From Accumulibacter sp. (GTDB lineage Bacteria; Pseudomonadota; Gammaproteobacteria; Burkholderiales; Rhodocyclaceae): DNA of 64,000 bases. A program made the position numbers and the translations under genes. The DNA lies in the NCBI GenBank assembly GCA_024235715.1, contig JACKLW010000005.1:310001-374000 (forward strand), in the 5' to 3' direction. Shown piece after piece: positions 29,269 through 48,794 of the stretch (position 1 is its first letter; the number at the start of each line of letters is the position of its first letter). The notes under the pieces were generated by a model that did not search any database, had not been told where the DNA came from, and saw only the letters and a program-made list of their open reading frames with translations.

Positions 29269-32200
29269 TTACCTTATCTTCACGCTGGCGAGCCGAGCGC
29301 TATTCATCGCCACCGGACTGTCGGCGGCGACGAACTGTACCCGCGTTTCAGCGGCAAGCTCCAGCCGGTTGCCCTCGACGTGCAGCACCGTGGTGGAGAC
29401 CTCGCTGCTCGCCAGGTCATCCACCCGCGCCCGCGCCACTACCCGGTCGGCCTGATAGACCAGCGCCTGCATTCCGACCCTGAGCTTGAGACCGTCGGTA
29501 ACGCGGATTGGCAGGCGAATACCCGGCACGGCAGTGACCGGCGCCGGCAGGCGGCCCGAGATGATGCGATTGACCGGTGCGTGGCTGGCCAGCAGCAGGC
29601 ACATGTGCACCACGTCGTTGATCAAGTCCTCCGCCTCGCGGTCGCCGGCCTTCATCTGCCCGAACAGCCAGTCGGCATAGGCCTGCAATTGCCGTCTCGT
29701 TTCATAGCTCAGTTCACCCCAGCGTGGCAGGCCAGCGAGGTTTCTCAGCCGCGGCGTGGCATCGAACTGCGACAGGCGCTCGGCCCAGTCGAGACGTATC
29801 GCCGGGAGGACTTCGGAGAAAGCCTCGTGCAGGCAGGCGGCAATCCGCGAGATGTCCTCGAACACCTTGGCGGCCTGGCTGGCGACCGCGCCGCTGCCGT
29901 GCTCGCCGTCGATCAGGTCACCCAGCGAGACGACCTTCTCGGCCTCGGCGCGAGCGCCCTGCCAGCCCAGCGCACCGATCACCAACGGGTCGATGCGGGT
30001 TGCCGCGACGCGCAATTGCTGTACGGCGGCGAGTTGCTTGCCCTGCAGCGCAGCAATCGCGCCAGCGATGCCGCTTACGGTACTGGCTACCGGTTGGGCC
30101 GCCACCCTGAGGTTCATGATCTGGCTGCGCAATTGCGCCGACTGCATGGTCTTGACCAGCAGATCCACCCGGTCGAGCTTGTCGAGCAGCGCCGGCAAGC
30201 GTTCGAACCAGCGCGACGGCGCCTCGCGCACCACCGCCAGCAGATCGGCGAGTTCGTCGGGCGCATCCTGGTGCGCCATTAGACAGGCCGGCACCGGCGC
30301 TTCGAGCAGGCCAGGATCGAGCTGGCGCAGCGGTGCCGGGCTGATCAGTTCGGCCTCGCGCGGTCGTTGGTAGGCGACGAAGCTGACGTGATCGCGCAGG
30401 ATCTGCGCGCGGCGATCGTTGATTGCCGCCAGCCGTGCCTCTTCCTCGGCAATCAGCGCGCGCGTTACCGCCACGTCGTGGCGCGCCTCGGCCAGATCCT
30501 CGCCCACAACCTGCAGCGTTCTTTCCAGAGCGCCGGCCTGCGTCCGGAGAGTGTCGAGCAGCGACTGGCTCAGGGAAATGGCGTCGCGGTAAAGCTTGAT
30601 GCGGCCTTCGAGCTGGCGCATCAGCGCCACGGTGTTGTCGGAGAGGTCGGCGCCATCGGAAAAATAGGCCGACTCGTCGACCTTGCTGCGGCGCGGCGCC
30701 TGCAGCATCAGCGACAGGCGCCAGCGCTGCTGGAGTACGGTACGTAACGGCAAGCTGCGGCGCAGGCCGTTGAGCGTGTCCTGCTCGGCGGGGTCGGTGC
30801 TGTCTACGATCGGCAGCGGGCGGTTGGGATCGCCCACTTGCGTCTCGTCGTCGTAGAACAGGGCCGGATCGCCACGCACGCCGTGAAAAGCCACGCCCTC
30901 GAAAAGACCGGCGCTGTCGCCACCGTCCTCGCTCTCGAGCGCATCGGCCAGGGAAATCAGGCCGCGCACCGCTTCGTAGCGAGTGGAAGTGGTGTAGTCC
31001 TTGGCCTCGTTGGCCTTGGGCGCCTCGAGCCGCTCGGCGATACTTACCGTACGCACCTCGGCCTTGCCGATCAGCGGCGCGGCGTTGGTGATGTCGAAGG
31101 GAAGGAAGCTGGTGCCGGCGCTCAGCAGCTTGGCGCTGGTGGCATCGCGCACCTGCGCGTTCTGGTTCAACGCCGTGCCGGCGGTGACGCTGAAGCCGCT
31201 CCCTTCGGACTGAAGCAGCGCCTGTCTCCCGGTCGACCCGAGATTCAGTGCCTGAGTGTCGCCGCCGGCGAACAGCGTGCTCCCACCGGCGCGGGCCGAG
31301 GTGGTCGAAATGCTGCCGGCCGACCCGACCGTCCCGCCGGCGGCAGCCGCCGCCGGCGCCGCCGACCGGGCCCTCGGCGTCGCCGGAGCGTTCTTCAGTT
31401 CGTCGAAGAAGCCGGCGATCCGCTCGGTGGACGCCACAGCCGTCTCGGCCTGGGCGATGCTGGCCAGGGCCGGCGAAACTGCCAGCCGCGTCGCTGCAGT
31501 CGTGCCAAGCACCAGCTGCCGTACGCGATAGATGTCGGTCTGTACCTTGACGAAGTTGTAGTCCACCAGGTCGTCGGCACGGTCAGCGCGGCTCTTTAGA
31601 TAGGCGACGAAGCCCTGCAGCCCGCGCTGAAAGATCTGGTAACGTTCCTGCGTCGAAAGGTGACCGAGCGCCGGGTTGTCGTAGAGCCGCAGCAGCGCCT
31701 CAACCTGGCCGTTCACTGCCGCGCTGGTCGGCGCGCGCAGATCACGCGCCGCGAGGAACTGCCAGTTGCCGCGTTGCTGTGCACCGGCCGGCAGCGTGCG
31801 CGAGAACCACTCGCGCTCGACATTGGCGGCCGACAATGCGCCGGCGCTCCCGAAAGCCGCACTGCCATCAAAGAAAGTGAAGGCCATGCCGTTCAGCGCC
31901 GTGCCGGCCACGTCGACCCCGTTGGCGGCATCCACCGGCACCTCGAGCCGCAGCCAGCGCCCCGGCCGTGGAATCGCGCCGAGGCGCCGGCGTGACGGCG
32001 TACCTTCGACGCCCCAGCTGATGCGACTCAGCCCCCAGTACGCGCGATGGTCCCAGCCCGCGGCGCTGCGCCATTGCAGCATCAGCTGCGTCGGTGGATT
32101 GTCGGGGTCTACGAACACCCATACGTAGAGCCGCTCAGCCACCGCGGCCGTGAAGGTGGCGCTGGCGTTCTCGAAAAAGTGTTGATGCAGGCCAGCCTGC

Positions 32201-34218
32201 GCCGGCTCGCTATGGCCCCCGCCGGCTGGCGCGCCGCTGCCATCGACTGGCAGAACGGCCGTCGAAGCCTCGAACGGTGCCCACAGGTCGTTGTGGGTCA
32301 TGAAGTCCCAGCGCTCGTCGCCATTCTCCTGAGCGGCAGTGGGAAGGACGCTGCAGAACCACTTCCGCGGCGCGCCATTGGTGGCTACGGCGCCGGTCAT
32401 CGCGAACGCTGCCTGGCCATCGTAGAGGGTGAAGGCCATGCCGTCGGCGGCCAGACCCTCTAGACCAACCAGCGCGGCCGGCAGTCTGAGCTGCAGCCAC
32501 TCGCCGGCGTCCGGCAGGTCGCCGGCGCGCGCACGCGAAACGGTCGCGTCGGTACCCCAGGCTATGAGATTCTCGCCCCAATAGGCGCGATGGTTCCAGT
32601 TGCCGGCATGCCATTGCAGCATCAGGGTGCGCGGCGGATTTTCGGGGTTCAGATAGACCCAGGCGAACAGTTGCTCACCGGCAGCGACCGCAAGCGTTTC
32701 GGTGGCCGCTTCAAAGAAATGCTGGTGCACGCCGGCACGCAGCCCCGAGCGATGTCCGCCGCCGGCAGGCGGCGGGCCCCAAGGGGCGAGCGCTTCCGTT
32801 TCCAGCGCTTCGGGATCGTCGGCAATTGACGGCACGGTCAGTGCCTTGCCGGTGATCGCACGGGCCAGCACCGACGCCCGTGTGCGCAGTCCCTGTCGGG
32901 CACCGAGTGCACGCGAGCGCTGCAGCTGGAAAGCAGCCAGGGTGCTGGCAAATTCGGGGTCGATCACCTCACGGATGAGCAGGCGCGGCTCGAACAGCGA
33001 CTGCGGCACCGGAACCAGCATGCGTACCCGCTCGCCCAGCGCCAGGTCCAGCGGCGCCAGCGAGGCCGCCTCGGCCAGCGCGGCATCGAGCTGTTCGGTC
33101 GGCAAGGGCACGGCATCGAGGGTGAAACTGGCAGGGAAGAAGCCGCTGCTCAAGGTCGCCAGATCGACGACATGCGCCGGCAACAGGCCGAATGGCGGCA
33201 GCTGCGCGTAGTCGGCAGCGAGCGTCGGAGCATCGGGCGACGGCTCGCCGGCCGATGCAATCTGCTCGGCGAGTTGTTCGAAACGCGCCTGCCACAGCGC
33301 CGGCAGCCGCCAGTGGATGCCGAGGCCATCGGCGGCGCCTCCCATCCGTCCGTAGCGGGCGTGGCCGCCGCTTCTTACAACGCTGGCGCGGTCGAGGAAC
33401 AGCGGCGTCCAGTCGGCAGCGCAGGCAAGCAGCCCGACCGGTACGCCAAACGCCTCCCAGGGCAGGGCCTCGTCGGCGGCAAGCATGCGTTCGGCGTTGA
33501 AGATGCGCCACGCCAGATCGTTGCGCCAGCGCCCTGGCGCGCCAGCCGGCATCGTCGGCAGGCTGACAAACTCTTCCGGCCAGGCGTACCACAGCAGCCG
33601 GGCTGCATCGCCGATGCGCCAGTCCTCGAAGGCGATCACATTGCCGCTGCCGCAGCCCTCCAGCGAACACGGGTCGGTGGCGTCCAGCTCGCCGATGCGG
33701 TCGGCGGTAACTGGCTGCAGAACAAGGATGCCGACCCTCGGCAGCGCATCCGGCAAGGCCGCCACCACCGCGCCAAGCGCCGGGCCAACCACCTTGCTTG
33801 CCACACTACCACCTGCGCCGCCGGCACTACCCATGCCGGCAAAGGCTGACGGGTCGGCCACGGCCGGCAGATCGGCCAGCGCCACTTCCAGCGCCTGCAG
33901 CACGCGCACGTCTTCGCCGTCGACACTCAGGCCCTGTCCCTGCATCAAAGCCAGCCGCGTGCCGGCAAGGCCGCCCGCGCTGTTGAACAGGGCCGTCTCC
34001 AGTCCGCGCACCACGCCCGGCGTGAAGGCCTGGCCGCGCAAGGCGATGTGGCGCGCCGCCCAGTTCTGGCGGCCCGACAGCGTCGGCCCGGTAAGCGTGC
34101 GGCCGGCAAACAGGTTTGGCCGACGCAGCCACCAGCGGCTGGCGTCGGCGGCATTCTCCGGCGCGAGACCGACGATATGCTCGCCAGCCAGGGGCCTGTT
34201 GATCGGTGTGATGCTCAC
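29269..34218 (-). CDS. very large eCIS accessory protein with duplicated jellyroll-like modules
   Basis: 1649 aa. Two ~125-residue modules (about 484-607 and 665-790) share the frame GGGH..AG.HQHFFE, W(V) ... NPP..LMLQW, W.HRAYWG, I.WG, SR.R.G..P..G.WL.L and GMAFT..DG.AAF; this pattern is seen in concanavalin/LamG-like beta modules of surface proteins, so glycan or target binding is possible. The rest is beta-rich at the N-terminus, with a coiled-coil around 1100-1300 (LEGRIKLYRDAISLSQSLL) and a helical C-terminal part. Start is GTG at 34218, supported by a near-perfect AAGGAGGTG. Possible roles: fibre, cage or baseplate extension. Confidence 0.72.
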   Translation of the reverse strand: MSITPINRPLAGEHIVGLAPENAADASRWWLRRPNLFAGRTLTGPTLSGRQNWAARHIALRGQAFTPGVVRGLETALFNSAGGLAGTRLALMQGQGLSVDGEDVRVLQALEVALADLPAVADPSAFAGMGSAGGAGGSVASKVVGPALGAVVAALPDALPRVGILVLQPVTADRIGELDATDPCSLEGCGSGNVIAFEDWRIGDAARLLWYAWPEEFVSLPTMPAGAPGRWRNDLAWRIFNAERMLAADEALPWEAFGVPVGLLACAADWTPLFLDRASVVRSGGHARYGRMGGAADGLGIHWRLPALWQARFEQLAEQIASAGEPSPDAPTLAADYAQLPPFGLLPAHVVDLATLSSGFFPASFTLDAVPLPTEQLDAALAEAASLAPLDLALGERVRMLVPVPQSLFEPRLLIREVIDPEFASTLAAFQLQRSRALGARQGLRTRASVLARAITGKALTVPSIADDPEALETEALAPWGPPPAGGGHRSGLRAGVHQHFFEAATETLAVAAGEQLFAWVYLNPENPPRTLMLQWHAGNWNHRAYWGENLIAWGTDATVSRARAGDLPDAGEWLQLRLPAALVGLEGLAADGMAFTLYDGQAAFAMTGAVATNGAPRKWFCSVLPTAAQENGDERWDFMTHNDLWAPFEASTAVLPVDGSGAPAGGGHSEPAQAGLHQHFFENASATFTAAVAERLYVWVFVDPDNPPTQLMLQWRSAAGWDHRAYWGLSRISWGVEGTPSRRRLGAIPRPGRWLRLEVPVDAANGVDVAGTALNGMAFTFFDGSAAFGSAGALSAANVEREWFSRTLPAGAQQRGNWQFLAARDLRAPTSAAVNGQVEALLRLYDNPALGHLSTQERYQIFQRGLQGFVAYLKSRADRADDLVDYNFVKVQTDIYRVRQLVLGTTAATRLAVSPALASIAQAETAVASTERIAGFFDELKNAPATPRARSAAPAAAAAGGTVGSAGSISTTSARAGGSTLFAGGDTQALNLGSTGRQALLQSEGSGFSVTAGTALNQNAQVRDATSAKLLSAGTSFLPFDITNAAPLIGKAEVRTVSIAERLEAPKANEAKDYTTSTRYEAVRGLISLADALESEDGGDSAGLFEGVAFHGVRGDPALFYDDETQVGDPNRPLPIVDSTDPAEQDTLNGLRRSLPLRTVLQQRWRLSLMLQAPRRSKVDESAYFSDGADLSDNTVALMRQLEGRIKLYRDAISLSQSLLDTLRTQAGALERTLQVVGEDLAEARHDVAVTRALIAEEEARLAAINDRRAQILRDHVSFVAYQRPREAELISPAPLRQLDPGLLEAPVPACLMAHQDAPDELADLLAVVREAPSRWFERLPALLDKLDRVDLLVKTMQSAQLRSQIMNLRVAAQPVASTVSGIAGAIAALQGKQLAAVQQLRVAATRIDPLVIGALGWQGARAEAEKVVSLGDLIDGEHGSGAVASQAAKVFEDISRIAACLHEAFSEVLPAIRLDWAERLSQFDATPRLRNLAGLPRWGELSYETRRQLQAYADWLFGQMKAGDREAEDLINDVVHMCLLLASHAPVNRIISGRLPAPVTAVPGIRLPIRVTDGLKLRVGMQALVYQADRVVARARVDDLASSEVSTTVLHVEGNRLELAAETRVQFVAADSPVAMNSARLASVKIR

Positions 34219-34234
34219 GATCCACCTCCTTCAG

Positions 34235-36202
34235 TCATTTGCGCGTGGCCCCGGCCTTGTCGGCGGGCGCGCTCTTGCTTGCCGCTGGCGTCCCCTTGCG
34301 ACGCTTGCCCGATGGCGTGGTGGCGGCCTTTTCGCCGGCAGCCGTAATCGTCCCTTCGTCGCGCTTGTCGGCCGCTGCGCGTGCTGCCTGCGCGGGCTGT
34401 GCCTGCGCAGGCTTTGCCGGCGCGGCCTGCCGAATCGGCTGCGGACGCAGAACCGTACGCGCCATGCCCGACAGCTCGCTACCTCTGGCACTGGCGGCTG
34501 CAAGGTCGGAGCTTCGCCAGTCGCCACCGCCGGCCATTGCCTGCAGTGCGGTCTTGCTCGGCACGGTGTCCGGTCGCGAGCGCTCGAGGCGGGTCAGACC
34601 CTCGCCGACGCCGGGCGCCGACAGGTCGGCCGCGACCCGCAGCACGGCCGCCTGATCGAGCTGCTCGACCTGGCCGAGTTCGCCCAGCGCGGCGGCGGTG
34701 AGACTTGGCGATGCAAGGAAGCGCGGACTCGCCAGAAGGCTCTGGACTTCCAGCGCGGCGCGCGGCGTGGCGCGCGCGAGCACCCGGTTGGTGGCGCCTT
34801 CGAGACCCAGGGCGGCAAAGCGCGGCGCCTCCGTGTCGAAAGTGTCACGACCGGCGACACGGATCGCTTCGCCGGCCAGATCGTCGCGATAGGCAAGATT
34901 GCGCCGGCGCACGAACCACAGGTTGGGCAGTGCCGCGAGCCGCGCCCACTCCGCCTGCGCGGGGTCGCTCGGCTCGACTGCCGGCGGCAGTCGCGGAATG
35001 CGCAGCTGCTGCAGGATCTCCAGCGGCTTGCGCGTCGCCACCAGATTGATCGCCGCCGGGCGCAGGCTGCGGGTACGCGTGCTGAGACGGTTGCTCACCG
35101 CGCGCCACTCGTTGCGAGGGATCGGCGCCAGCAACAGCAGCGAGGTCGATTCGAGTGTCGCCGATGGCGCCTCGAGGTCGATCGGTGGCAGCAACAACGC
35201 TTCCTCGACCAGTGCCGGCAGCTCGTCCTCCGGGATGATCGAGAAATCGACGGCCATTTCGGGCGGGAAGTAGCGCTGCGTGAAATCCCGGCTGTCGATC
35301 ATCCCCGCCGGAACCGGCCCGGCCGACGGCAGCAGCGGAAAGTTCTCGCGCGCCGCAAAGCCGCGCCCGCCGCTGGCCAGCAGTATATCGGCAAGATGCA
35401 CCTGGTGCTGGATCAGGTGCGCCAGCCGCAGCGCCCGGGGTGCGTGGCCAAGGCCCGGCAGGTCGGCGCGGTCCGCACCCAGTTCGCGGCGCACCATGGC
35501 TTCGTCGATCCACACCACGACGTTGTTCGCAAGCGCCAGCATGGCCAGCGGCAGGACGTTGGCCGACAGTCCCCGCTCGGCGTCGCCGGCAAAGATTGCT
35601 GCCGCCGCCCGACCACGCCGCGCATTGAGTGCATCGGCGGCGCCATCGTCCTGCCACGGCACCAGCACGATCGCCGTGGCTTCGACCACGTCGCCGTCCT
35701 CGACGGTACGCTGGCCGGTGATCGAAGTCGGATAGGCGCCTGTAGGCGTATCGGTGTATTCGACCGGGCGCAGTGCCAGGACGAAAAGGCCGGTGCGGTT
35801 GCGCAACGGCGACTGCGGCACCCTGCCGAGTCCGAAGCGCGCCGACAGCTGCTCGGCACGCGGGATGTCGGCGAGCCGCAGTTCGATGCTTCGCGTCAGC
35901 AGCACCAGTTCACCAGCCGCCGTGATGCCGTGCCCGGCAGCCACATTCACCCGGTCGCCGGCGCTGCCGCGCTCGACGTCGAGCCCGCTGGCGACGCCAC
36001 TGCCGGCGGCCTGGCCGAGATCGGCCTCGCGGGTGAGGATGTACTGCTGGTCGCGGATCAGGTCGCGCGCAGCAAGGAAGCGGCCGTCGAAGTAGCGTGG
36101 CCGTTCGCGGCGCGGATCTTCGATCAGCACCCCGGCGTCCTTGAGCAGCGCCACGTCGTCGGGGCCGAGGGTTTCGCGGGTCTTGCCAGTCGTCAGATTC
36201 AT
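34235..36202 (-). CDS. eCIS-associated protein of unknown function with basic tail
   Basis: 655 aa. The N-terminal ~100 residues (RYFDGRFLAARDLIRDQQYI ... GSGVASGLDVE ... GHGITAAGELVLL) resemble those of the next gene downstream in the map (HYATGMLLDAGDFADEQTYH ... LAGLRVRQV), so the two are probably related at their N-termini. The C-terminal ~70 residues are Lys/Ala/Pro-rich and unstructured. ATG at 36202 has GGAGG upstream. Likely a particle component because it lies among baseplate genes; no enzymatic motif seen. Confidence 0.65.
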   Translation of the reverse strand: MNLTTGKTRETLGPDDVALLKDAGVLIEDPRRERPRYFDGRFLAARDLIRDQQYILTREADLGQAAGSGVASGLDVERGSAGDRVNVAAGHGITAAGELVLLTRSIELRLADIPRAEQLSARFGLGRVPQSPLRNRTGLFVLALRPVEYTDTPTGAYPTSITGQRTVEDGDVVEATAIVLVPWQDDGAADALNARRGRAAAAIFAGDAERGLSANVLPLAMLALANNVVVWIDEAMVRRELGADRADLPGLGHAPRALRLAHLIQHQVHLADILLASGGRGFAARENFPLLPSAGPVPAGMIDSRDFTQRYFPPEMAVDFSIIPEDELPALVEEALLLPPIDLEAPSATLESTSLLLLAPIPRNEWRAVSNRLSTRTRSLRPAAINLVATRKPLEILQQLRIPRLPPAVEPSDPAQAEWARLAALPNLWFVRRRNLAYRDDLAGEAIRVAGRDTFDTEAPRFAALGLEGATNRVLARATPRAALEVQSLLASPRFLASPSLTAAALGELGQVEQLDQAAVLRVAADLSAPGVGEGLTRLERSRPDTVPSKTALQAMAGGGDWRSSDLAAASARGSELSGMARTVLRPQPIRQAAPAKPAQAQPAQAARAAADKRDEGTITAAGEKAATTPSGKRRKGTPAASKSAPADKAGATRK

Positions 36203-36248: not shown

Positions 36249-37229
36249 TCATCCGCCCACCAGCCCCATTGCCCCGGCAAGCATGCCCAGGTGCGGCAGC
36301 ACGCGGCGACGGCCGTTATCGACGATCGCATCGCCGCTGCGTGCCGGCGGGTCGCCGACCGCCACCGGAACGAAGACCCGGGCGAGAAAAACCGCCGTCG
36401 GGTCGAGACCCGGCGGATGCCCAGGCGCCGCCGGCAGTTCGCCCGTCGCATCGCCGCTGCCGCTGATGTCGGGCCAGCCGTCGAGCACCACGTCATGCAG
36501 CGCCGCGCGGCGCTCGGCGGGAGTGAGCGCCGAAAGATCGCGGTCCTGTTGCGGCAGGCCATCGAAGTTGTCGTCGAGGCCGTCGCCGCGCAGCACCAGG
36601 TGCACCTCGAAGGCATCACGCAGGCGCGAAGTCTGCACGGCGTCAAGCGCGTCGAAGGGCCCACTGGCAAAAGCCGGCGTGAGCGCCTGCCGACAGGTGA
36701 CGAAGCGCACGAAAACATCTGCGATCACGGCCCGCGCCGGCAAGGCCGGTCCGTCGGCAATGAGCCGTGCACTGGCGAAGCGGTCCAGGTTGTCAAGTGC
36801 GGCGAGGCGCAGCGCGTCGCCGCCGTCGCGCGCCAATTCGCCGTCGAACCAGCGCGTGACGCGCAGGCACACCGCGCGTGGCAACTCCACCAGGCGACCG
36901 AGCCTGTCAACCGCGAGACCGGGGGATATACGGACTTCCTCCACTGCTTCGCCCGCCGCGGGGACCTGGCGCACCCGCAGACCGGCCAGCGTGCCGCCAG
37001 CGAAGAGGCCAGCCGCGCCGGCTGCATCGGGATCCATGCCGTCAGGCAGGCGGCGCGCTCCGGCCCCGCTGACAAAGGCCAGCGCTCGCGCCAGCCGGTT
37101 GCGGTGATAGGTCTGTTCGTCGGCAAAATCGCCGGCGTCGAGAAGCATGCCCGTCGCGTAATGCGGGCGCGCCGCATCGGGCAGCGCGTAGAGCGGGTCG
37201 TCGGACGGCGGGCGAAGGGTGCTGTTCAT
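36249..37229 (-). CDS. eCIS-associated baseplate-region protein of unknown function
   Basis: 326 aa. N-terminus (YATGMLLDAGDFADEQTYHRNRL) similar in pattern to the 655-aa protein. A middle section (VRISPGLAVDRLGRLVELPR) follows the same GxxVDxxGxxVxL turn seen in that protein. Overlaps the previous small PKD-fold gene by four bases (start 37229, upstream stop at 37226). Probably a structural or docking protein. Confidence 0.65.
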   Translation of the reverse strand: MNSTLRPPSDDPLYALPDAARPHYATGMLLDAGDFADEQTYHRNRLARALAFVSGAGARRLPDGMDPDAAGAAGLFAGGTLAGLRVRQVPAAGEAVEEVRISPGLAVDRLGRLVELPRAVCLRVTRWFDGELARDGGDALRLAALDNLDRFASARLIADGPALPARAVIADVFVRFVTCRQALTPAFASGPFDALDAVQTSRLRDAFEVHLVLRGDGLDDNFDGLPQQDRDLSALTPAERRAALHDVVLDGWPDISGSGDATGELPAAPGHPPGLDPTAVFLARVFVPVAVGDPPARSGDAIVDNGRRRVLPHLGMLAGAMGLVGG

Positions 37230-37546
37230 GTTTCGCTCCTGGATTTTGCGGGTTTGCGCGCCCGCGTCTTGCGCGGCTTGGCCGGTGTCCGGATGCGGGT
37301 ACCGACCGGGTCGCCGGTCGGCGGCAACACCGGCACCACGGGTGGCCGGGTGACTGGCGGTCGAACCGGCACCGGGATCACGACCTCCCGGGCAACCACC
37401 ACGTCCACCATGTCAGGCGCACTCTGGCGCCCGTCATTGCTGACCACCACCAACTGGAAGCGGTGAATGCCGACCGCGAGGCCGGCATCCACCACCACCA
37501 GCGCGTCGCTGGTCGTGACGGTACGGCCCCTGACAAAAGTGGTCAT
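37226..37546 (-). CDS. small protein with half PKD/Ig-like fold and basic proline-rich tail
   Basis: 106 aa. Residues ~1-52 (DAGLAVGIHRFQLVVVSNDG then MVDVVVAR) look like only the second half of a PKD-type domain (the G-x-H/Y-x-F-x-L-x-V strand, turn, and V-x-V end strand). Residues 53-75 are Pro/Val-rich, and the rest is Lys/Arg-rich (TPAKPRKTRARKPAKS). GGGGGAG precedes the ATG. It follows a gene that ends with the first half of a PKD domain, so fold completion between the two products is suspected. Overlaps the 326-aa gene by four bases. Confidence 0.7.
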   Translation of the reverse strand: MTTFVRGRTVTTSDALVVVDAGLAVGIHRFQLVVVSNDGRQSAPDMVDVVVAREVVIPVPVRPPVTRPPVVPVLPPTGDPVGTRIRTPAKPRKTRARKPAKSRSET

Positions 37547-37568
37547 GCGATCGGCTCCCCCTGACCGC

Positions 37569-37880
37569 TCAGGGCTGGCCCATGTAGGTCCACAGATAGC
37601 TCACTACCCGCCCGCCGCCGGCGTCGAAGGATCTGCTGCCGTCGAGGTTGAAACTCGTCGCGAAGTTCACGCTGCGTGGCGCGCCGAGCACTGCGGTCGG
37701 GTTTTGCGTATCGGCGACGATGACCACCACCTCGTCGGGTATTGAAGTATTGCCGGAGTCGTCCACCACCACCAGACGGAACGTGTGGCGCCCGAGCGGC
37801 AGCGCGTTGTTGGCTGAAATGGTGACCTCGACGGTTGGGGTGTCGGTCCTGACTTCCTGGTTGATGACGAACTCGGCCAT
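37569..37880 (-). CDS. small protein made of two PKD half-domains
   Basis: 103 aa. Residues ~12-55 (LPLGRHTFRLVVVDDSGNTS, PDEVVVIV) fit the second half of a PKD fold; residues ~60-103 (NPTAVLGAPRSV, FNLDGSRSFDAGGGRVVSYLW) fit the first half of another PKD fold and end right after the Y-x-W-x strand. AAGGAG precedes ATG at 37880. This order (second half then first half) is a circularly permuted or linking arrangement between the upstream 896-aa protein and the downstream 106-aa protein. Confidence 0.75.
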   Translation of the reverse strand: MAEFVINQEVRTDTPTVEVTISANNALPLGRHTFRLVVVDDSGNTSIPDEVVVIVADTQNPTAVLGAPRSVNFATSFNLDGSRSFDAGGGRVVSYLWTYMGQP

Positions 37881-37935
37881 GATGGGCTCCTTGGGTCGGA
37901 TGGTGTTGCCTGTGTTGCTTCCTGAATGCGGGCGC

Positions 37936-40626
37936 CTACTCGGTGAAGCGCCATCGATACTCGGTGATGCGCCGGCCCGGCGCGGCGCTGGAACCGCCGC
38001 CGTCGAGCACGAAGCTGCTACCGCGCGGAACGCTCATATCGGGGCCGGCGTTGGCCACCGGCGGCGCGGTGGGGAGCCGCGCGAGCGCACCCGACAAACG
38101 CGGATCGAGGCTGCCGAAGCCGAGCACGTAGTCGCCATTGCCGAGGCTGCTCACGCCAATCCGGGCCGGAACGCGTGCGCGCGGTGGGCCAAGGTAGGTG
38201 TCGACACCGACCAGACTAGCGATGCCGACCAGCAGCGGCCACGTCGCGGTCTCGACTTGCACCTCGACATGGGCGGGCGACTCGAGCTCGACGATGCGAC
38301 GGATCAGGCCCAGATCCTGCGCCTCGACGTTCTGGTGCACCAGGACCATCGCGCGGAACGCGAGCTTGTCGTAGAAGGCCAGCACTGCCTCGCGCTCGGC
38401 AGTCGAAATCAGCTCGTCGCGGAACAGCGCCAGCAGTTCGACGCGTTCGGCCTCGCCGAGAACCAGGGTGTCGCCGACCACCGAGTTGCCACTGATCACC
38501 AGTCCCGGCAGCAGCGGATCGTCCTCGACATTGAGGTTCACGCCGAGCAGCGTGCTCATCAGCCGGCGCATCCGGAAGCCTTCCAGGACGACGATTTCAC
38601 CGCCGCGCACGCCGCCGTCGCTGGCGATGTCGAGTGCCAGTCGCAAGCCGCGGCGGGTGCCGTGGTAGCGCGCCAGCTCGCTCGAATGGAGGAGCCACTC
38701 GCGCCGCCGATCCTCCGGCAGCGCCGCGTCGAAGGCCACCCCCAGCCAGCCGCCAAGCCATTCGAGCGACTCTTCCTGCGCAACCGCGGGGTCAGTGGTC
38801 AGATGTGCTCCAGCGACGCGGTCTTCGAGCGGGGTGAGGACGCCTTCGACATTGCCCAGCAGGCGTTCGAGGAAGTCTGCCGGCGTGGCTTGCGGGCGGT
38901 AGGCGACGATGCGCGCGTCCTCGTGGCGCAGCGTCCAGCTGGACGCGCCGTCGCGCAGCAGCCACAGCACACCCGCGGTCAGCACTGCAACGCGTGCAGC
39001 CTCGCCGAGTGCCAGCGTGGAGCGCAGTTCGCCCGGCAGGGCGGCTGCGTCAAGGTCGGTGGCCAGCAAGGCATCGACCACGGCCACCGCCACCCCGGGG
39101 CTTTCCGCCGCGGCGCCGAATTCGCTTTCACGGTAGAGCCGCGGCAGGTACCTATCGCGGTAGGAGAAGCGCGATCCGTAGGCGCGCAGCGCGGCAAGGT
39201 CCGGGGAATCGCGCCCCTCGCCGAAGAACTCCACCCGCAGCCATAGATAGCGGCCGCTGAGCGCCCGTACCCGATGCGTGGCGCGCTGGATCATCGCCGT
39301 CCACAGTCCGGCGCGGCCGGCCTCGGGAGTCCCCCAGGCGCCCAGGCCGGGATGTCCCGGCAGCTCGGAAGGCTGACGTTCCCACACGGCGTGCGGCACG
39401 GGACCGGCTGGCAGCGCCGCGTCGGGCAATTCACCGAAGACATGCGCGTGCCATTCATCGACCGTCGCCACGCCCGGCTCGGCGCTGGTCGCCAGCCATA
39501 CCAGCAGGCCGCAGCCGGCCGGCAGGCGTGCTTCGGCATAAAGCCGGTGCCAGACGGTCTGCTGGTCGCCGCTGTCTACCAGATGGGTCGCCGCGACGCT
39601 GAAGTTCGCCGCCTCGCCACGGCGGGCGAGGTTGGCCAGCGACAGCCGGTGGAGCGGCTCGAGCGCGCCGCCAGCCAGCGGGTAACGTGGCGGATCGTCG
39701 AGGCGATGAGCAAATGGTGCTTCTTCTGCGTCGGCGGCAAGCGGGTAGATATCCCCGGTCGGTTGCAGCGTCAGCTCGCCAGCGGGCGACAGGCGCGGCA
39801 CCCACACCGGCGCATCGCGCCGGCCGGGCAGACGCGCGCCGATCCGGCCCTCGCCGAGCCAGTCGATCGCGTAGGCGAAAGCTGCGCCGGCCAGCGTCTG
39901 CGCCGGCCCGAGCGTACCGCGCTGCCGGTCGAGCAGACGCAGGCGGCATTCGCCATCGCCGAACCATGACAAGAGGGCCAGCGTACCGTCGGGCGCGAGC
40001 GCCAGCGACTGCGGCCGTTCGCCGGCCGGCCATGCCACGCCGTCGAAAACCTTCACGGTTGGCGGGCTCGGGTTTTCCGGAACGGGGCGGAAAGTACCCG
40101 CTGCGTAATCAGCGGCCGGGCGCTGCGGCTGCACGCAGCCGGTGAGCCGGGCGAGGCGGCCACTGGCACGTTCCAGAAGCCACACACCGGCAAACGGATC
40201 GACCGCAATACGCCACGCCTGGAAGGTCGGCGTCGGCAAGACGGTATCGGGCCAGCGACCACGCAGGTCATGCAGCAACAGGCGATCGCTGAGGGCCACG
40301 TACAGCACGTCGTCAAAGCCGGCCGCAAAGTCCTGCGGCCGCTCGGCAAGCGGCAGCAGGGTCGCGGCCGCAGGCAGATGACTGACGGAGACGATGGCCA
40401 TCTCGGCATCGTCCCAGTGCGAGCTGGCTCCGTGCCGATCGACCGAGCGCGGCAGGCGCTCGAGCGCCGCTGCGGCGATCGCCGCAGCGTCCGCCGGGGC
40501 TGCCGAGAGGCTGCGCTCACTGGCGAGGCGCAATGCGCGACAGCCGGCACGGTAATCGACATGACTGCGCCCCGGCCAGTGCCGGTCGTCGGCAAGCAAC
40601 CAGAAGCGCTGGCCGTTGGCGTCCAT
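37936..40626 (-). CDS. P2 gpI-like phage tail protein with beta-propeller-like N-terminus and half PKD C-terminus
   Basis: 896 aa. The N-terminal ~450 residues show repeated WD/NHL-like strands (VLYVALSDRLLLHDL, PQSLALAPDGTLALLSWF). Residues ~640-720 contain EESLEWLGGWLGVAFD, RREWLLHSSELARYHGTRRG, the signature of tail protein P2-I (Afp12-like) that links baseplate wedge and fibres. The last ~45 residues (PPVANAGPDMSVPRG, FVLDGGGSSAAP, ITEYRWRF) are the first half of a PKD domain and then stop. Start ATG at 40626 shares one base with the baseplate J stop; the longer ORF start is discarded. Confidence 0.85.
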   Translation of the reverse strand: MDANGQRFWLLADDRHWPGRSHVDYRAGCRALRLASERSLSAAPADAAAIAAAALERLPRSVDRHGASSHWDDAEMAIVSVSHLPAAATLLPLAERPQDFAAGFDDVLYVALSDRLLLHDLRGRWPDTVLPTPTFQAWRIAVDPFAGVWLLERASGRLARLTGCVQPQRPAADYAAGTFRPVPENPSPPTVKVFDGVAWPAGERPQSLALAPDGTLALLSWFGDGECRLRLLDRQRGTLGPAQTLAGAAFAYAIDWLGEGRIGARLPGRRDAPVWVPRLSPAGELTLQPTGDIYPLAADAEEAPFAHRLDDPPRYPLAGGALEPLHRLSLANLARRGEAANFSVAATHLVDSGDQQTVWHRLYAEARLPAGCGLLVWLATSAEPGVATVDEWHAHVFGELPDAALPAGPVPHAVWERQPSELPGHPGLGAWGTPEAGRAGLWTAMIQRATHRVRALSGRYLWLRVEFFGEGRDSPDLAALRAYGSRFSYRDRYLPRLYRESEFGAAAESPGVAVAVVDALLATDLDAAALPGELRSTLALGEAARVAVLTAGVLWLLRDGASSWTLRHEDARIVAYRPQATPADFLERLLGNVEGVLTPLEDRVAGAHLTTDPAVAQEESLEWLGGWLGVAFDAALPEDRRREWLLHSSELARYHGTRRGLRLALDIASDGGVRGGEIVVLEGFRMRRLMSTLLGVNLNVEDDPLLPGLVISGNSVVGDTLVLGEAERVELLALFRDELISTAEREAVLAFYDKLAFRAMVLVHQNVEAQDLGLIRRIVELESPAHVEVQVETATWPLLVGIASLVGVDTYLGPPRARVPARIGVSSLGNGDYVLGFGSLDPRLSGALARLPTAPPVANAGPDMSVPRGSSFVLDGGGSSAAPGRRITEYRWRFTE

Positions 40627-43420: not shown

Positions 43421-45213
43421 GAGTCACCTCCGCTCTTTTTGGGGAAGGGAATGCAGATCTTGATGAACATCATCCAGCGGAAGAACAGGTCGAACAGCGA
43501 CAGAAAGATGTTCAGCACGATGAAGGCGCAGATAGTGATGATCGGAATGTTGAAACTGCAGATCCACCCCAGCTTGAGGCCGCTGTCGGCCGGCTTCTTG
43601 CCATCCATCAGGTCTAGCGGATCGCCCGACAGCAGGTTCTGCATCGACGCCGGCACGGTGAAGGCGACATTGGGCTTCAGCTTCTTGAGCATCTCCTTGT
43701 CGCCCGGGTCGGGCAGCGGCACCTGCACCGGCGGCGCACCGCTGCCTTCGTACCACGGCGCAATCACGAAGGCCGGGCTGTAGTCGCCCCAAACCGTGCG
43801 TGCCGGGCAGCTGCCTTCGGGCTTGAGACGCACGAAGGCGCGCAGCACGTAGCGCGCGTCCGGCGCGTCGAAGCGCCCGGCGACGCCCGTCACCGCGTCG
43901 AAGCGTACGCGCAGGCAGGCCGACAGCGCGCGCGCCAGCGAATCGCGGGTTTTTGCGTCGAGTGCCGGCCAGCCGGCCGGGATGGTCGGCGCCGGCGAAA
44001 GAGACTCCTCGTTGAGCAGGATGCGGCTCGCCGCGGCAAGAAAATCGCCCGCCGGGTGGCTGCCGGCGATCGGCTTGCCAGCCGAGTCGGCCAGCGGCAG
44101 GGCGATGCCATTGAGCACGCTCAGCAAAGCGTCGGCCTCGGCACTGTCGCCAAAGGCATCGAACTCGACCGCTAACTGGCGCAGCAGCAGCAGCAGGCGC
44201 TTCATGGCGCTGCGATCCGAATCCGCCGCATTGCCGGCAATCGTCGCCAGATCGGGGGTGAGCAGGCGCCCCGGCCGCGGGAAGCTGTCGGCGAGACCGG
44301 CCAGCGGACCAACCAGGTGCGCCTTGAAGTCGTCCGTGCCCGGACCGAATGCCGCCTCGTCGAATTCCGGTGCACCGGCTTCCGCCTGTTCGCTGCTGGT
44401 CGTCGGAATCAGGCCGTAGAACAGCGTCGCCGCCGCCGCCTGGCAGACATCGGGCGGGGCGATGAACATTGGCACCACTGCTTCGTTGAGCAGTGCGTCT
44501 TCCTGCGCGGCCAGTAGCGCGCTCACCTCGCGGTCGAGCACCGCCTGGCCGGTGGTCGGCCGGCTGAGCCGGCGCCGTGCTTCGGGATCGTGCCGGTTGC
44601 CGCTCGCTGCGGCGTCGGCGGCAGTGGCGATACGTGCCCAGCCCTTGAGGCTTTCGCCGGCGCGCATCCAGCCCTGCTTGATCTCGCGTCCCTGGGCATC
44701 GCGCACCAGGCGGCGGATCACCATGCCGGCGCCGTCGACGCGCTTGGGGTCGATGCGCGGCTCGCCCGGCGTGTCGCAACGCGCTTCCATCACCGCCAGG
44801 TTGAACTGACGCTGGATCGGCTGGAAAAGCTTGAGCACCTGTGCGCCTTCGGCAGCGCGGCGGATGCCTTCGACACGCTTCTGCTCACTCTCCTGCCCGC
44901 TCCGTCCCAACGACCCGTCCACCGTATCCAGCGCACGCCCGCCGGCGAGGCCCAGTTGGCGGCTGGCGCTGCGCAGCCGGTCGAAGAGTTCGCGGCCACC
45001 GTTGCGTTTGCCGCGCGGCCGGGTGTCGGTACCGCTGGCAACCGTACTCGCGCGCGCCAGACTGCTGCGCAGACCGACGCGCCCGTTGACGTCGCGCAGA
45101 CCGGCCAGCACCGCCTCGATGAAATCCTCGTCGCTGCGCTGCAGGATGGCCGGCGCGCCAGCATCGCTGAGGTCTCGCGGTGCCGAGAGAATGATCTCGT
45201 GATGGCTCACCAT
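43417..45213 (-). CDS. eCIS protein of unknown function with C-terminal transmembrane segment
   Basis: 598 aa, mostly helical and soluble for the first ~540 residues, with no recognised motif. The end (~557-594) is strongly hydrophobic (FNIPIITICAFIVLNIFLSL, then FFRWMMFIKICIPF) and closes with a basic tail, suggesting one or two membrane helices. Placed between spike and gp25, where other eCIS have Afp10-type or accessory proteins. A membrane anchor in the baseplate operon would make the system act from inside the cell. Start ATG at 45213 overlaps the spike stop by seven bases; the longer ORF start is discarded. Confidence 0.7.
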   Translation of the reverse strand: MVSHHEIILSAPRDLSDAGAPAILQRSDEDFIEAVLAGLRDVNGRVGLRSSLARASTVASGTDTRPRGKRNGGRELFDRLRSASRQLGLAGGRALDTVDGSLGRSGQESEQKRVEGIRRAAEGAQVLKLFQPIQRQFNLAVMEARCDTPGEPRIDPKRVDGAGMVIRRLVRDAQGREIKQGWMRAGESLKGWARIATAADAAASGNRHDPEARRRLSRPTTGQAVLDREVSALLAAQEDALLNEAVVPMFIAPPDVCQAAAATLFYGLIPTTSSEQAEAGAPEFDEAAFGPGTDDFKAHLVGPLAGLADSFPRPGRLLTPDLATIAGNAADSDRSAMKRLLLLLRQLAVEFDAFGDSAEADALLSVLNGIALPLADSAGKPIAGSHPAGDFLAAASRILLNEESLSPAPTIPAGWPALDAKTRDSLARALSACLRVRFDAVTGVAGRFDAPDARYVLRAFVRLKPEGSCPARTVWGDYSPAFVIAPWYEGSGAPPVQVPLPDPGDKEMLKKLKPNVAFTVPASMQNLLSGDPLDLMDGKKPADSGLKLGWICSFNIPIITICAFIVLNIFLSLFDLFFRWMMFIKICIPFPKKSGGDS

Positions 45214-45893
45214 ATGTTCCCCGCTCCCGGTGTGTAACTGGTGGAAACCACCGAAGTGGCCTGCAGCACCTCGCACTTGACGATGCCCGAGAATTTGGCC
45301 ATCGCGGTGTCGACGGTCACCATGCCGGCACTGACCTTCACCTGCGGTGCCTCGACCTTGACCTCGGCGCTGGCGGTGATGCTTATCCGCGCCGCCTCCA
45401 TCTCCACCCGGTTGCCGTTGGAATCCTCGACGGTGACCTTGCCCGGTCCGTCGGACAGCGTCAGTTTCTGCCCGCCCGGCGTCTCGAGCACCAGTTGCTC
45501 CTGACCCTGCTGATCATCGAGCGTGACCGTGACGCCGTTCTTCGAACGGATGCGCTTGAAGCGATTGCCCTCGTCGCCGAGTTCGGCCGGTGCCGCGTTG
45601 GCGCCACTCCACAGTCCCCCGATCACCAGCGGATAGCGGGCGTCGCCCTGCAGGAAGACCACCAGGACTTCGTCATCGACGTCGGGCATCAGGAAGGCGC
45701 CGCGGTCGGCACCGGCAAAGGGACACACCACCCGCGCCCAGAGCGGCGCATCCTGGCCGTCGAAGGCGTCGCAGGCAAGCAGGCGGAGCTGCACCCGGTT
45801 GCGGCGCTCGGGATCGGCGATGTCGACCACGCGGGCAAGCTGGACACCGTTGAGCCATCCGGCGGCGGGCTGGAAGAGAGGCGCGCGATCCAT
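45207..45893 (-). CDS. spike protein, gpV/gp5-like (Afp8 C-terminal type)
   Basis: 228 aa. N-terminal OB-fold (LNGVQLARVVDIADPERRNRV, LWARVVCPFAGADRGAF, DVDDEVLVVFLQGDARYPLV) as in gp5/VgrG spikes, followed by a beta-helical repeat part (KLTLSDGPGKVTVEDSNGN; RISITASAEVKVEAP). It trimerises to form the puncturing tip below the hub. The hub (gpD) part is a separate gene immediately upstream with a one-base overlap, whereas in Afp8 and VgrG they are fused. ATG at 45893 fits that junction. Confidence 0.92.
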   Translation of the reverse strand: MDRAPLFQPAAGWLNGVQLARVVDIADPERRNRVQLRLLACDAFDGQDAPLWARVVCPFAGADRGAFLMPDVDDEVLVVFLQGDARYPLVIGGLWSGANAAPAELGDEGNRFKRIRSKNGVTVTLDDQQGQEQLVLETPGGQKLTLSDGPGKVTVEDSNGNRVEMEAARISITASAEVKVEAPQVKVSAGMVTVDTAMAKFSGIVKCEVLQATSVVSTSYTPGAGNIW

Positions 45894-46987
45894 CAGGAAG
45901 CTTCTCCGAGGTAGGCACACTCGCCGATGAACTCGGTGCGATAGCCGGCGCGCACATCGTACCGATGGCAGGCCCTGACGACGTAATAGCTGTTGTCCCA
46001 GCGCCCGGACAGGCCACTGACCGCGACGGTCGTGCCGACCCGCAGCTGGGCATTGCCCTCGGCGACGCCGTCGAGGCGCACGAAGCGCCGCGCGCGCTGG
46101 TCGAAGGCCGCCTCGGCAACCGCCTGGGCCTCGCCATCGCTGGCCAGCGCCAGGTGACCGAGGTGCTCGCTGCGCCGCTCGAGTGCGCGCGACAGCCAGT
46201 CGGCGCCGCTGGTCCCGCTGCCGGGCCCGCCGTGGCTCAGGCTGCTGGCCTCGGCGCTGACCGCGCTGCCAGCGACCGGATCCCAGCCCGCGGCGGTGAT
46301 GCTGCTTACCTGCTGCGCGAGATCGGCGACCACCCGGGCACGCGCCAGCTGGCCATGCAGCTCGAGACTTAGCTCACCCCGCCGTACCTCGCCGCGCGGC
46401 GCCACCTGCAGCTCTTCGCCGACGATCTGCAGGTCGCCATCGAAACGCCCGAGCAGCCGTCGCAGGAAGGCGAGATCACTCTCATTGAGTTGCGCCCAGG
46501 TGCCGATCGGCTCGGCCAGGCCCTGAACCGCAGGACGCAGCCCCAGCTCGCTGGCCACCGCGTTGACCACGTCGGCCGGCGACATGTCCGCGTAGACCTT
46601 GCTGCGGCGGGCCATGCGGGCGCGACCGAGCGGGTCTTCGGCGAGCACCACCAGTTCGGGTGGCGAGCCCTGCGCGAATTCGGCCTCGAGGCCGCTGACC
46701 ACGCCGCGAAACAGCTCCCGGGCCTGGTTTTCGTCGCCTGCATAGACCTCGATGGCCGTGCCGAGCGCGAGCCGCGAACCATCCTCGAAGGCGTATTCCG
46801 CTGCTGCGTCGGTGGTGCTGGCCCAGTTCGAAAAACGCAATTCCGCGGTCGTCATGCCGCCCTCGGATTCCTCGATACGCATGCCGATGAGCAACTCCGA
46901 GACACGCAGATCCTCCTGCCCGGCGAGCCGCAACGTGGGGCGGGCACGATAGACGGCGGATTGGCTGACGGAAGTCTCGACGGGCAT
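45893..46987 (-). CDS. hub protein, gpD-like (VgrG/Afp8 N-terminal type)
   Basis: 364 aa of the phage late-control gpD / gp27-like hub family. Signatures: PTLRLAGQEDLRVSELLIGM at the start, FRGVVSGLEAEF, YADMSPADVVNAVASELGL (the classic gpD segment), LNESDLAFLRRLLGRFDGDL, and the end RWDNSYYVVRACHRYD. It forms the ring that carries the spike and connects to the tube. Its ATG is 12 bases after the 57-aa gene stop and its stop overlaps the spike ATG by one base. Confidence 0.92.
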   Translation of the reverse strand: MPVETSVSQSAVYRARPTLRLAGQEDLRVSELLIGMRIEESEGGMTTAELRFSNWASTTDAAAEYAFEDGSRLALGTAIEVYAGDENQARELFRGVVSGLEAEFAQGSPPELVVLAEDPLGRARMARRSKVYADMSPADVVNAVASELGLRPAVQGLAEPIGTWAQLNESDLAFLRRLLGRFDGDLQIVGEELQVAPRGEVRRGELSLELHGQLARARVVADLAQQVSSITAAGWDPVAGSAVSAEASSLSHGGPGSGTSGADWLSRALERRSEHLGHLALASDGEAQAVAEAAFDQRARRFVRLDGVAEGNAQLRVGTTVAVSGLSGRWDNSYYVVRACHRYDVRAGYRTEFIGECAYLGEAS

Positions 46988-48329: not shown

Positions 48330-48794
48330 TCAGCTCACGAGCACCAGGCCCTCATGGGCCAGGTGCAATTCCTCGATACCGATCTCGCTGCCCTTGGCAT
48401 TGAGGTCGGCGGCCTTGAACTTCACCGGCATCGCGCGGCGCAGTGCCCAGCGCACCACCGCTTCGTCGGCGCTGTTGCGCATTTCGATCTCGACCTGCAG
48501 GCGATAGGCGTAGGCACCGGCGCCAACCTTGGCGAACCAGTTCCACAGGTCGCGCGTGTCGGTCATGCCACGCTTGAGCACCACGGTGGCGAAACTTACC
48601 TGACCGGCACGTTGTACCGCGCCGTAGTTGCTGCCGCCGACCTTGATCACCTTGGGCTCCATGGTCGCTTCCAGTCCGCTGCAGTCCGAGAAAGCGCCCT
48701 GGCACAGCGGCACGTCTGCACCGCTGGGGTTGGCCAGCGACTGCTGGCTGAAGCTGACATGGAAGCGGAACACGTGCAGCGGGATGTCATTCAT
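48330..48794 (-). CDS. tail tube protein 2 (gp19-like, Afp5 type)
   Basis: 154 aa, T4 gp19-like inner tube protein: FRFHVSF, CSGLEATMEPKVIKVGGSNYG, VVLKRGMTDTRDLWNWFAKV, ALRRAMPVKFKAADLNAKGSEIGIEELHLAHEGL. These match the tube pattern of the 147-aa paralogue. In Afp the second tube protein joins tube to baseplate, which fits its position next to the Afp7-like gene. ATG at 48794 overlaps the sheath-2 stop by one base; the much longer ORF in this frame is a read-through of the sheath gene's other frame. Confidence 0.92.
   Translation of the reverse strand: MNDIPLHVFRFHVSFSQQSLANPSGADVPLCQGAFSDCSGLEATMEPKVIKVGGSNYGAVQRAGQVSFATVVLKRGMTDTRDLWNWFAKVGAGAYAYRLQVEIEMRNSADEAVVRWALRRAMPVKFKAADLNAKGSEIGIEELHLAHEGLVLVS

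What the first reader, a model, noticed from the sequence alone, without database searches (positions are those of the whole stretch)
37226..38090. PKD-type domains split in halves across three consecutive eCIS genes
The 896-aa tail protein ends with only the first half of a PKD domain (ANAGPD..V, LDGGGSS, Y-x-W-x-F). The next product (103 aa) begins with a second half (LPLGRHTFRLVVVDDSG, VVVIV) and ends with another first half (LDGSRSF, YLW). The third (106 aa) begins with a second half (GIHRFQLVVVSNDG, VDVVV). Each gene has its own ribosome-binding site. This looks like a chain of proteins joined by completing each other's beta-sandwich, as in donor-strand or split-domain assembly. I know of no such description for eCIS. 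The halves are seen; the joining is inference.
Basis: partly seen in the sequence, partly recalled or inferred. Interest (0 to 1): 0.82.

Follow-up and report, generated by a model that had tools for sequence, protein, structure and literature searches.

The report
PKD domain split across three genes
In a bacterial phage-tail-like injection machine, two small folded domains are each cut in half, with the halves encoded in three neighbouring genes, so at least two of the proteins must probably meet and complete one another to fold; this arrangement is kept across many bacteria and no description of it was found.

Summary
In this Accumulibacter-like eCIS locus (minus strand) the Tail_P2_I protein ends in the first half of a PKD domain. 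The 103-aa product is a second half plus a first half, and the 106-aa product starts with a second half. It is no sequencing accident: 24 distinct loci keep three genes with separate stops and starts, and no fused form was seen. Of 33 tail proteins found with a profile that leaves the PKD part out, 21 end in the half: 19 have both small genes, 2 are cut by contig ends. The other 12 lack the half and both genes. In two loci the third gene is a bare 53-aa second half.

Joining in trans is therefore likely, but the partners are not settled. Profile alignment and gene order favour a chain tail-103-106. AlphaFold2 instead closes the 103-aa protein on itself and leaves the tail half unfolded, at modest to low confidence, and a weak covariation test leans partly the same way. 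A multimer prediction or a pull-down would decide.

The parts
37936..40626 (-). Tail_P2_I/TIGR02242 baseplate protein, 896 aa; its last about 43 residues are the first half (strands A-C) of a PKD domain
   Evidence: Pfam Tail_P2_I 29.4 bits (cut-off 20.6) and PKD_4 2-41/85 at residues 854-894; TIGR02242 52.7 bits (cut-off 51.85)
37939..38067 (-). first PKD half at the C-terminus of the tail protein
   Evidence: aligns with positions 59-101 of the 103-aa family
37569..37880 (-). 103-aa protein: second PKD half (residues 1-57) followed by a first PKD half (58-103)
   Evidence: 18 of 18 family members match both PKD models at E up to 0.1; spans the joint of two tandem PKDs in 6nz0 and ColH
37887..37892 (-). 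Shine-Dalgarno-like AAGGAG of the 103-aa gene
   Evidence: read; AGGAG-type stretches also stand before the 103 start in the loci that have a gap between tail and 103
37226..37546 (-). 106-aa protein: second PKD half (residues 1-51), then a proline-rich basic tail
   Evidence: hhalign to 103 positions 1-61, 98.9%; PDB profile match to KIAA0319L second half, E 1.5e-5
37555..37558 (-). short GGAG stretch before the 106-aa gene
   Evidence: read
36249..37229 (-). 326-aa CIS13-like protein, next gene; its start overlaps the stop of the 106-aa gene by 4 bases
   Evidence: weak partial match to NF053767 CIS13_fam, 27.4 bits against a cut-off of 370; coordinates
34235..36202 (-). 655-aa second CIS13-like protein
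   Evidence: weak partial match to NF053767, 22.1 bits
40626..42971 (-). baseplate J-like protein, 781 aa, upstream of the tail gene
   Evidence: TIGR02243 217.8 bits, Baseplate_J

Best explanation
Two tandem PKD (Ig-like beta-sandwich) domains extend the C-terminus of the eCIS baseplate Tail_P2_I protein, but each is cut in the loop between strands C and E (strand names by general knowledge of the fold), so the extension is made as three separately started, neighbouring polypeptides. The tail protein supplies the first half of PKD1. The 103-aa protein supplies the second half of PKD1 and the first half of PKD2. The 106-aa protein supplies the second half of PKD2 and, in most loci, a proline-rich tail. 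The pieces join without covalent bonds by completing each other's beta-sandwich, helped by translation from adjacent, sometimes overlapping, genes. SHOWN: the halves, their register, the conserved gene split, purifying selection, and joint presence or absence. INFERRED: that the halves bind in trans, that the order is serial, and that the product is a short arm or tether at the baseplate edge. The arrangement most likely arose by one gene fission inside a PKD domain, followed by tandem duplication of the whole split domain (inferred).
Confidence: 0.48

Rival explanations
1. The 103-aa protein closes on itself as a circularly permuted Ig-like domain (order E-F-G-A-B-C, with strand A as part of the linker). 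The tail half and the 106-aa half complete each other directly. Only one PKD domain is then joined in trans, and the 103-aa protein binds in some other way.
For: Closed AlphaFold2 model of the 103-aa protein alone and the same strands with the tail half present; tail half and 106 half covary given the tail core (p 0.017 with 12 loci, 0.061 with 15 loci) and the two halves of the 103-aa protein covary most.
Against: The 103-aa profile matches tandem PKD arrays colinearly, with the canonical strand-A motif invariant in 18 of 18. The structural neighbours listed for the lone model are not PKD and its strand A-B region is at pLDDT about 60. Halves in one gene may covary through shared rate alone. 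The gene lies between the other two in all 24 complete loci.
Confidence: 0.27
2. The pieces are leftovers or independent small proteins that never associate; the half domains are flexible tails.
For: No binding has been measured; Pfam scores are below curated cut-offs; AlphaFold2 leaves the tail half without strands.
Against: Median dN/dS 0.17-0.31 on every piece; core motifs kept over pairs only about 41-44% identical; all-or-none presence in 31 of 31 tails that can be judged; 53-aa bare second halves kept in two loci.
Confidence: 0.1
3. A programmed frameshift or stop read-through makes one fused protein.
For: The stretch between tail stop and 103 start is open in frame in L012, L011 and L017.
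Against: The gap between tail and 103 is of every frame class (mod 0, 1 and 2) with varying length (a 4-base overlap to 91 bases); every junction has a stop and a new start.
Confidence: 0.02
4. Sequencing or assembly error splitting one gene.
For: None found.
Against: The same split in 24 distinct loci from isolates and metagenome-assembled genomes.
Confidence: 0.01

Closest known systems
Tandem PKD arrays (KIAA0319L, PDB 6nz0; clostridial collagenase ColH)
   Same: Same fold family; the 103-aa profile spans the joint of two tandem domains
   Different: There one polypeptide; here cut in mid-domain into three genes
Donor-strand complementation in chaperone-usher pili (listing and recall)
   Same: Ig-like subunits completed by a neighbour; a grammar of starter, middle and end pieces
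   Different: There one donor strand per joint with chaperone and usher; here about half a sandwich (three strands) per joint, and no chaperone or usher was looked for
Split Ig-like domains of RTX adhesins (PMC10865825, passages)
   Same: Ig-like domain discontinuous in sequence
   Different: There split by a domain inserted in one chain; here split between genes
eCIS fibres with PKD/Ig modules and Tail_P2_I adaptors (PMC12923769, passages and sections 8 and 11)
   Same: PKD modules on an eCIS; Tail_P2_I protein as fibre adaptor likened to TssG
   Different: There PKD modules decorate eBAP4 fibre genes; here they extend the Tail_P2_I protein itself, in halves

Membership tests
PKD domain (Pfam PF18911, PF22352) | sequence match to the PKD profile | tested here: met
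   Tail and 103-aa protein match; 18 of 18 of the 103-aa family match both models at E up to 0.1; the 106-aa family matches through profile comparison and the PDB, not by Pfam in the window itself
PKD domain (Pfam PF18911, PF22352) | a whole domain in one polypeptide, above the curated cut-off | tested here: not met
   17.5-24.6 bits against a cut-off of 27; each match covers about half of the profile or less
eCIS | sheath, tube, hub, baseplate J, Tail_P2_I, AAA ATPase and eCIS_core protein in one locus | tested here: met
Donor-strand-complemented pilus subunits | an Ig-like fold completed by a stretch of the next subunit | tested here: inconclusive
   Sequence halves fit; AlphaFold2 runs on single chains do not show it; no multimer run possible
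Donor-strand-complemented pilus subunits | dedicated periplasmic chaperone and outer-membrane usher | not tested
   not searched; eCIS assemble in the cytoplasm (recalled)
RTX-type split Ig-like domain | both parts in one chain around an inserted domain | tested here: not met
   parts lie in separate genes

The most novel reading that the evidence does not exclude
A genetically encoded, self-limiting protein polymer: the tail protein carries only a first half (starter), the 103-aa protein carries a second and a first half (repeat unit), and the third protein carries only a second half (cap). The 103-aa protein could then insert in several copies, building an arm of variable length on each baseplate protein by beta-sandwich completion, switched from a self-closed form to the chained form during assembly. 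This would be a way of building fibres that I know of in no contractile injection system.
Probability: 0.12. Interest if true: 0.85.

Novelty: new variant of a known kind. Interest (0 to 1): 0.62.

Why it matters
If true, a contractile injection system extends its baseplate by joining half domains made from separate genes. That would be a natural split-protein joint, kept in 24 distinct loci, which could be tested at once in the test tube and might serve as an orthogonal protein-joining tool. It would also explain small genes of unknown function next to Tail_P2_I genes. In PubMed Central, searches for contractile injection with PKD (2 and 3 papers, all listed), Accumulibacter with contractile injection (0 papers), and eCIS with Ig-like, split or beta-sandwich (56 papers, 15 listed) showed no description of it in title or abstract; only passages or sections of four papers were read. 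Subscription papers and bioRxiv preprints are largely not in that library.

Tried and rejected
Fused or intermediate forms: none among the 24 distinct complete loci and 33 tails. Other phyla were hardly tested: the one scan of all species reaches close relatives only, the phylum search with the 103-aa profile stayed in the window's phylum, and of the two plasmid loci fetched from other phyla one (Rhodococcus) has the tail gene followed after 2 bases by the next large gene, while the other (Deinococcus) was not examined.

Plasmid, phage and viral collections: the 103-aa protein had only partial, weak PKD-type hits in 1 plasmid record and in 2 records of one phage and none confirmed in viral contigs (118 pattern matches, none a relative). 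The tail core had no plasmid match.

Long open frames with PKD hits (L002, L018-L028, L037) were set aside as ordinary unsplit PKD proteins; 19 complete domains from them served as yardstick and 13.

Covariation of halves: low power, related loci; reported mostly as evidence on the rival side, not as proof. The first version did not control for the tail core.

Half-domain trees: first halves group (98/97), second halves do not (58/10). Scores of tail half against 103 half beat the best complete domain in 2 of 4 loci only; 103 against 106 halves in 4 of 4.

Tail tree: 34 rows; three half-less tails (L087-L089) were left out and L009, L011, L012 and L040 added. The independent-pairs count there was run with the same label on both sides, so it shows only that at most three independent contrasts exist.

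Profiles: the tail-half profile was built from 10 sequences, 7 of which belong to tails among the 21 scored, so those seven match by construction; L092-L094, L096, L097 and L099-L102 were not in it. L101's third gene was missed at E 1e-4 and found by position.
Full report
What was checked. The minus strand carries an eCIS: sheath, tube, hub in two genes, TIGR02243 baseplate protein, Tail_P2_I protein, two proteins with weak CIS13 matches, an AAA ATPase and an eCIS_core protein. The finding lies between the Tail_P2_I gene and the first CIS13-like gene.

The halves. Pfam matches end or start in mid-domain: tail residues 854-894 on PKD_4 2-41/85, 103-aa residues 26-55 on K319L-like PKD 56-84/84, 103-aa residues 59-99 on PKD_4 2-41/85. 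All 18 members of the 103-aa alignment (one, L016, from a decayed locus) match both models. The 106-aa protein of the window has no Pfam PKD hit, but its family aligns over 57 columns with the first 61 positions of the 103-aa family and hits the second half of a KIAA0319L PKD domain in the PDB (E 1.5e-5). The tail end aligns with positions 59-101 of the 103-aa family. The 103-aa protein is thus a 106-like half followed by a tail-like half. Searched as a profile against solved structures, it lands colinearly on the joint between two tandem PKD domains in KIAA0319L (6nz0, whole-sequence E 8.5e-9) and in collagenase ColH (E 9.8e-4). From W of the first half to G of the second, the five loci measured have 29-45 residues per junction, against 19-33 (median 28) in 19 complete domains.

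It is conserved and coding. 22 rows were read; five repeat another row, leaving 17 distinct loci, and all 17 have three genes, each with its own stop and start. One search adds seven (L092, L093, L097, L099-L102), making 24, plus two cut by contig ends (L094, L096). One further locus, L016, has the 103- and 106-like genes beside a broken tail gene. Gaps between tail and 103 run from a 4-base overlap to 91 bases and fall in all three frame classes, so read-through or a fixed frameshift cannot be the rule. Median dN/dS over 12 related loci is 0.18 for the 103-aa gene, 0.31 for the 106 half and 0.25 for the tail half.

It comes and goes as one unit. A profile of the tail core without the PKD part found 33 distinct tails in six searches: 7 of 369 genomes of the class, 16 of 28 of the genus, 4 of 11, 1 of 13 and 1 of 5 of three orders, and 9 of 150 of a family (five repeats removed; cut-offs 1e-12 in the first two, 1e-60 in the rest). 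21 end in the first half (11.1 bits or more) and 12 do not (0.6 bits or less, or no score); the best of 598 reported shuffles, out of 660, has 8.2 (seven of the 21 belong to sequences from which the profile was built). Of the 21, 19 are followed by both small genes and 2 end with their contig. Of the 12, none is, within the up to 1.5 kb held beyond the match. On the tail tree, three half-less tails (L071, L095, L098) lie among bearers, best read as losses of the whole module. At most three independent contrasts exist there, too few for a sign test.

The strongest single fact is the third gene of L101 and L102: 53 residues, a bare second half with nothing after it (21.7 and 32.6 bits with the 106 profile, shuffles at most 6.3). 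Three strands of a beta-sandwich should not be a stable protein alone (established knowledge), so a partner is expected. The same holds for the tail half.

What speaks against the serial chain. AlphaFold2 on the 103-aa protein alone gave a closed sandwich (pLDDT 71.2, pTM 0.62, five models 71 to 54) whose listed neighbours are not PKD domains; that it is closed is read from its strands and from neighbours that span residues 5-103, as the coordinates could not be seen. With the L012 tail half in front on one chain (stop read as Gly; 14 rows, only three of them holding the tail half), AlphaFold2 gave the 103-aa part much the same strands and left the tail half without strands (pLDDT 60.1, pTM 0.53, five models 60 to 37). 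Partial Mantel tests given the tail core favour the two halves of the 103-aa protein (which share a gene) and, less firmly, tail half with 106 half; they do not favour tail half with 103 half, and 103 first half with 106 half is significant in one of two sets. I therefore hold the chain at about one half and the permuted, self-closed 103-aa protein at about one quarter.

Mechanism and origin. On the favoured reading, the Tail_P2_I protein ends in an open half sandwich. The next gene's product completes it and offers a new open half, and the last product caps the chain and carries a proline-rich, often basic tail. In L071, which lacks the module, the tail protein itself ends in a proline-rich basic stretch, so the small proteins may lengthen an arm whose working end is that stretch. 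Against this, the module-less L098 ends in a proline-rich but not basic stretch, L095 has only three prolines, and the third genes of L101 and L102 lack any such tail, so this cannot be the whole function. First halves of tail and 103 group together against complete domains (98/97) and the 103 and 106 second halves score above the best of 13 complete domains in 4 of 4 loci, though second halves form no supported group. One fission followed by tandem duplication of the split domain gives exactly this pattern. That is inference.

Literature. PMC12923769 (passages and sections 8 and 11 read) describes Tail_P2_I adaptors likened to TssG and PKD modules on eBAP4 fibres; no split Tail_P2_I extension was seen in what I read. 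PMC8213781 has no mention of PKD or Accumulibacter in its main text (term search). PMC11406892 (passages) concerns a PKD-like domain in a phage receptor-binding protein. PMC10865825 (passages) describes split Ig-like domains within one chain. Donor-strand papers were seen only as a listing.

Verdict. A real, conserved and, as far as these searches show, undescribed gene architecture. Joining in trans is likely, its wiring is open and cheap to test.

Noticed in passing
L101 774-935 (minus) and L102 3259-3420: Third gene reduced to a 53-aa bare PKD second half.
   Followed up: yes
L016 1300-2048: 103- and 106-like genes intact beside a broken tail gene and downstream of an open frame that reads like GMP synthase (by eye): a decaying locus.
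   Followed up: partly
L011 2108-6967: One open frame of 1619 aa ends like the tail protein with its PKD first half, about twice the usual length: apparently the baseplate J-like and Tail_P2_I proteins fused in this Thauera locus.
   Followed up: no
window 45207-46987: The VgrG-like hub is split into a GPD-like and a baseplate-V-like gene, overlapping by 28 bases as called; a Rhodococcus plasmid locus shows two genes as well (L090).
   Followed up: no
window 48330-50186: 618-aa frame with the gp19 tube domain only at its C-terminus (residues 473-614); the first 470 residues have no Pfam or NCBIfam match, unless the start is called too early.
   Followed up: no
window 29269-34218: 1649-aa protein between the CIS13-like genes and the ATPase, with no Pfam or NCBIfam match at E up to 10.
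   Followed up: no
genus search (L075-L089): Within the genus, 16 of 28 genomes carry an eCIS-type tail by the core profile; 9 have the PKD half and 7 (L083-L089) belong to other, PKD-less lineages, so the genus holds more than one eCIS type.
   Followed up: partly
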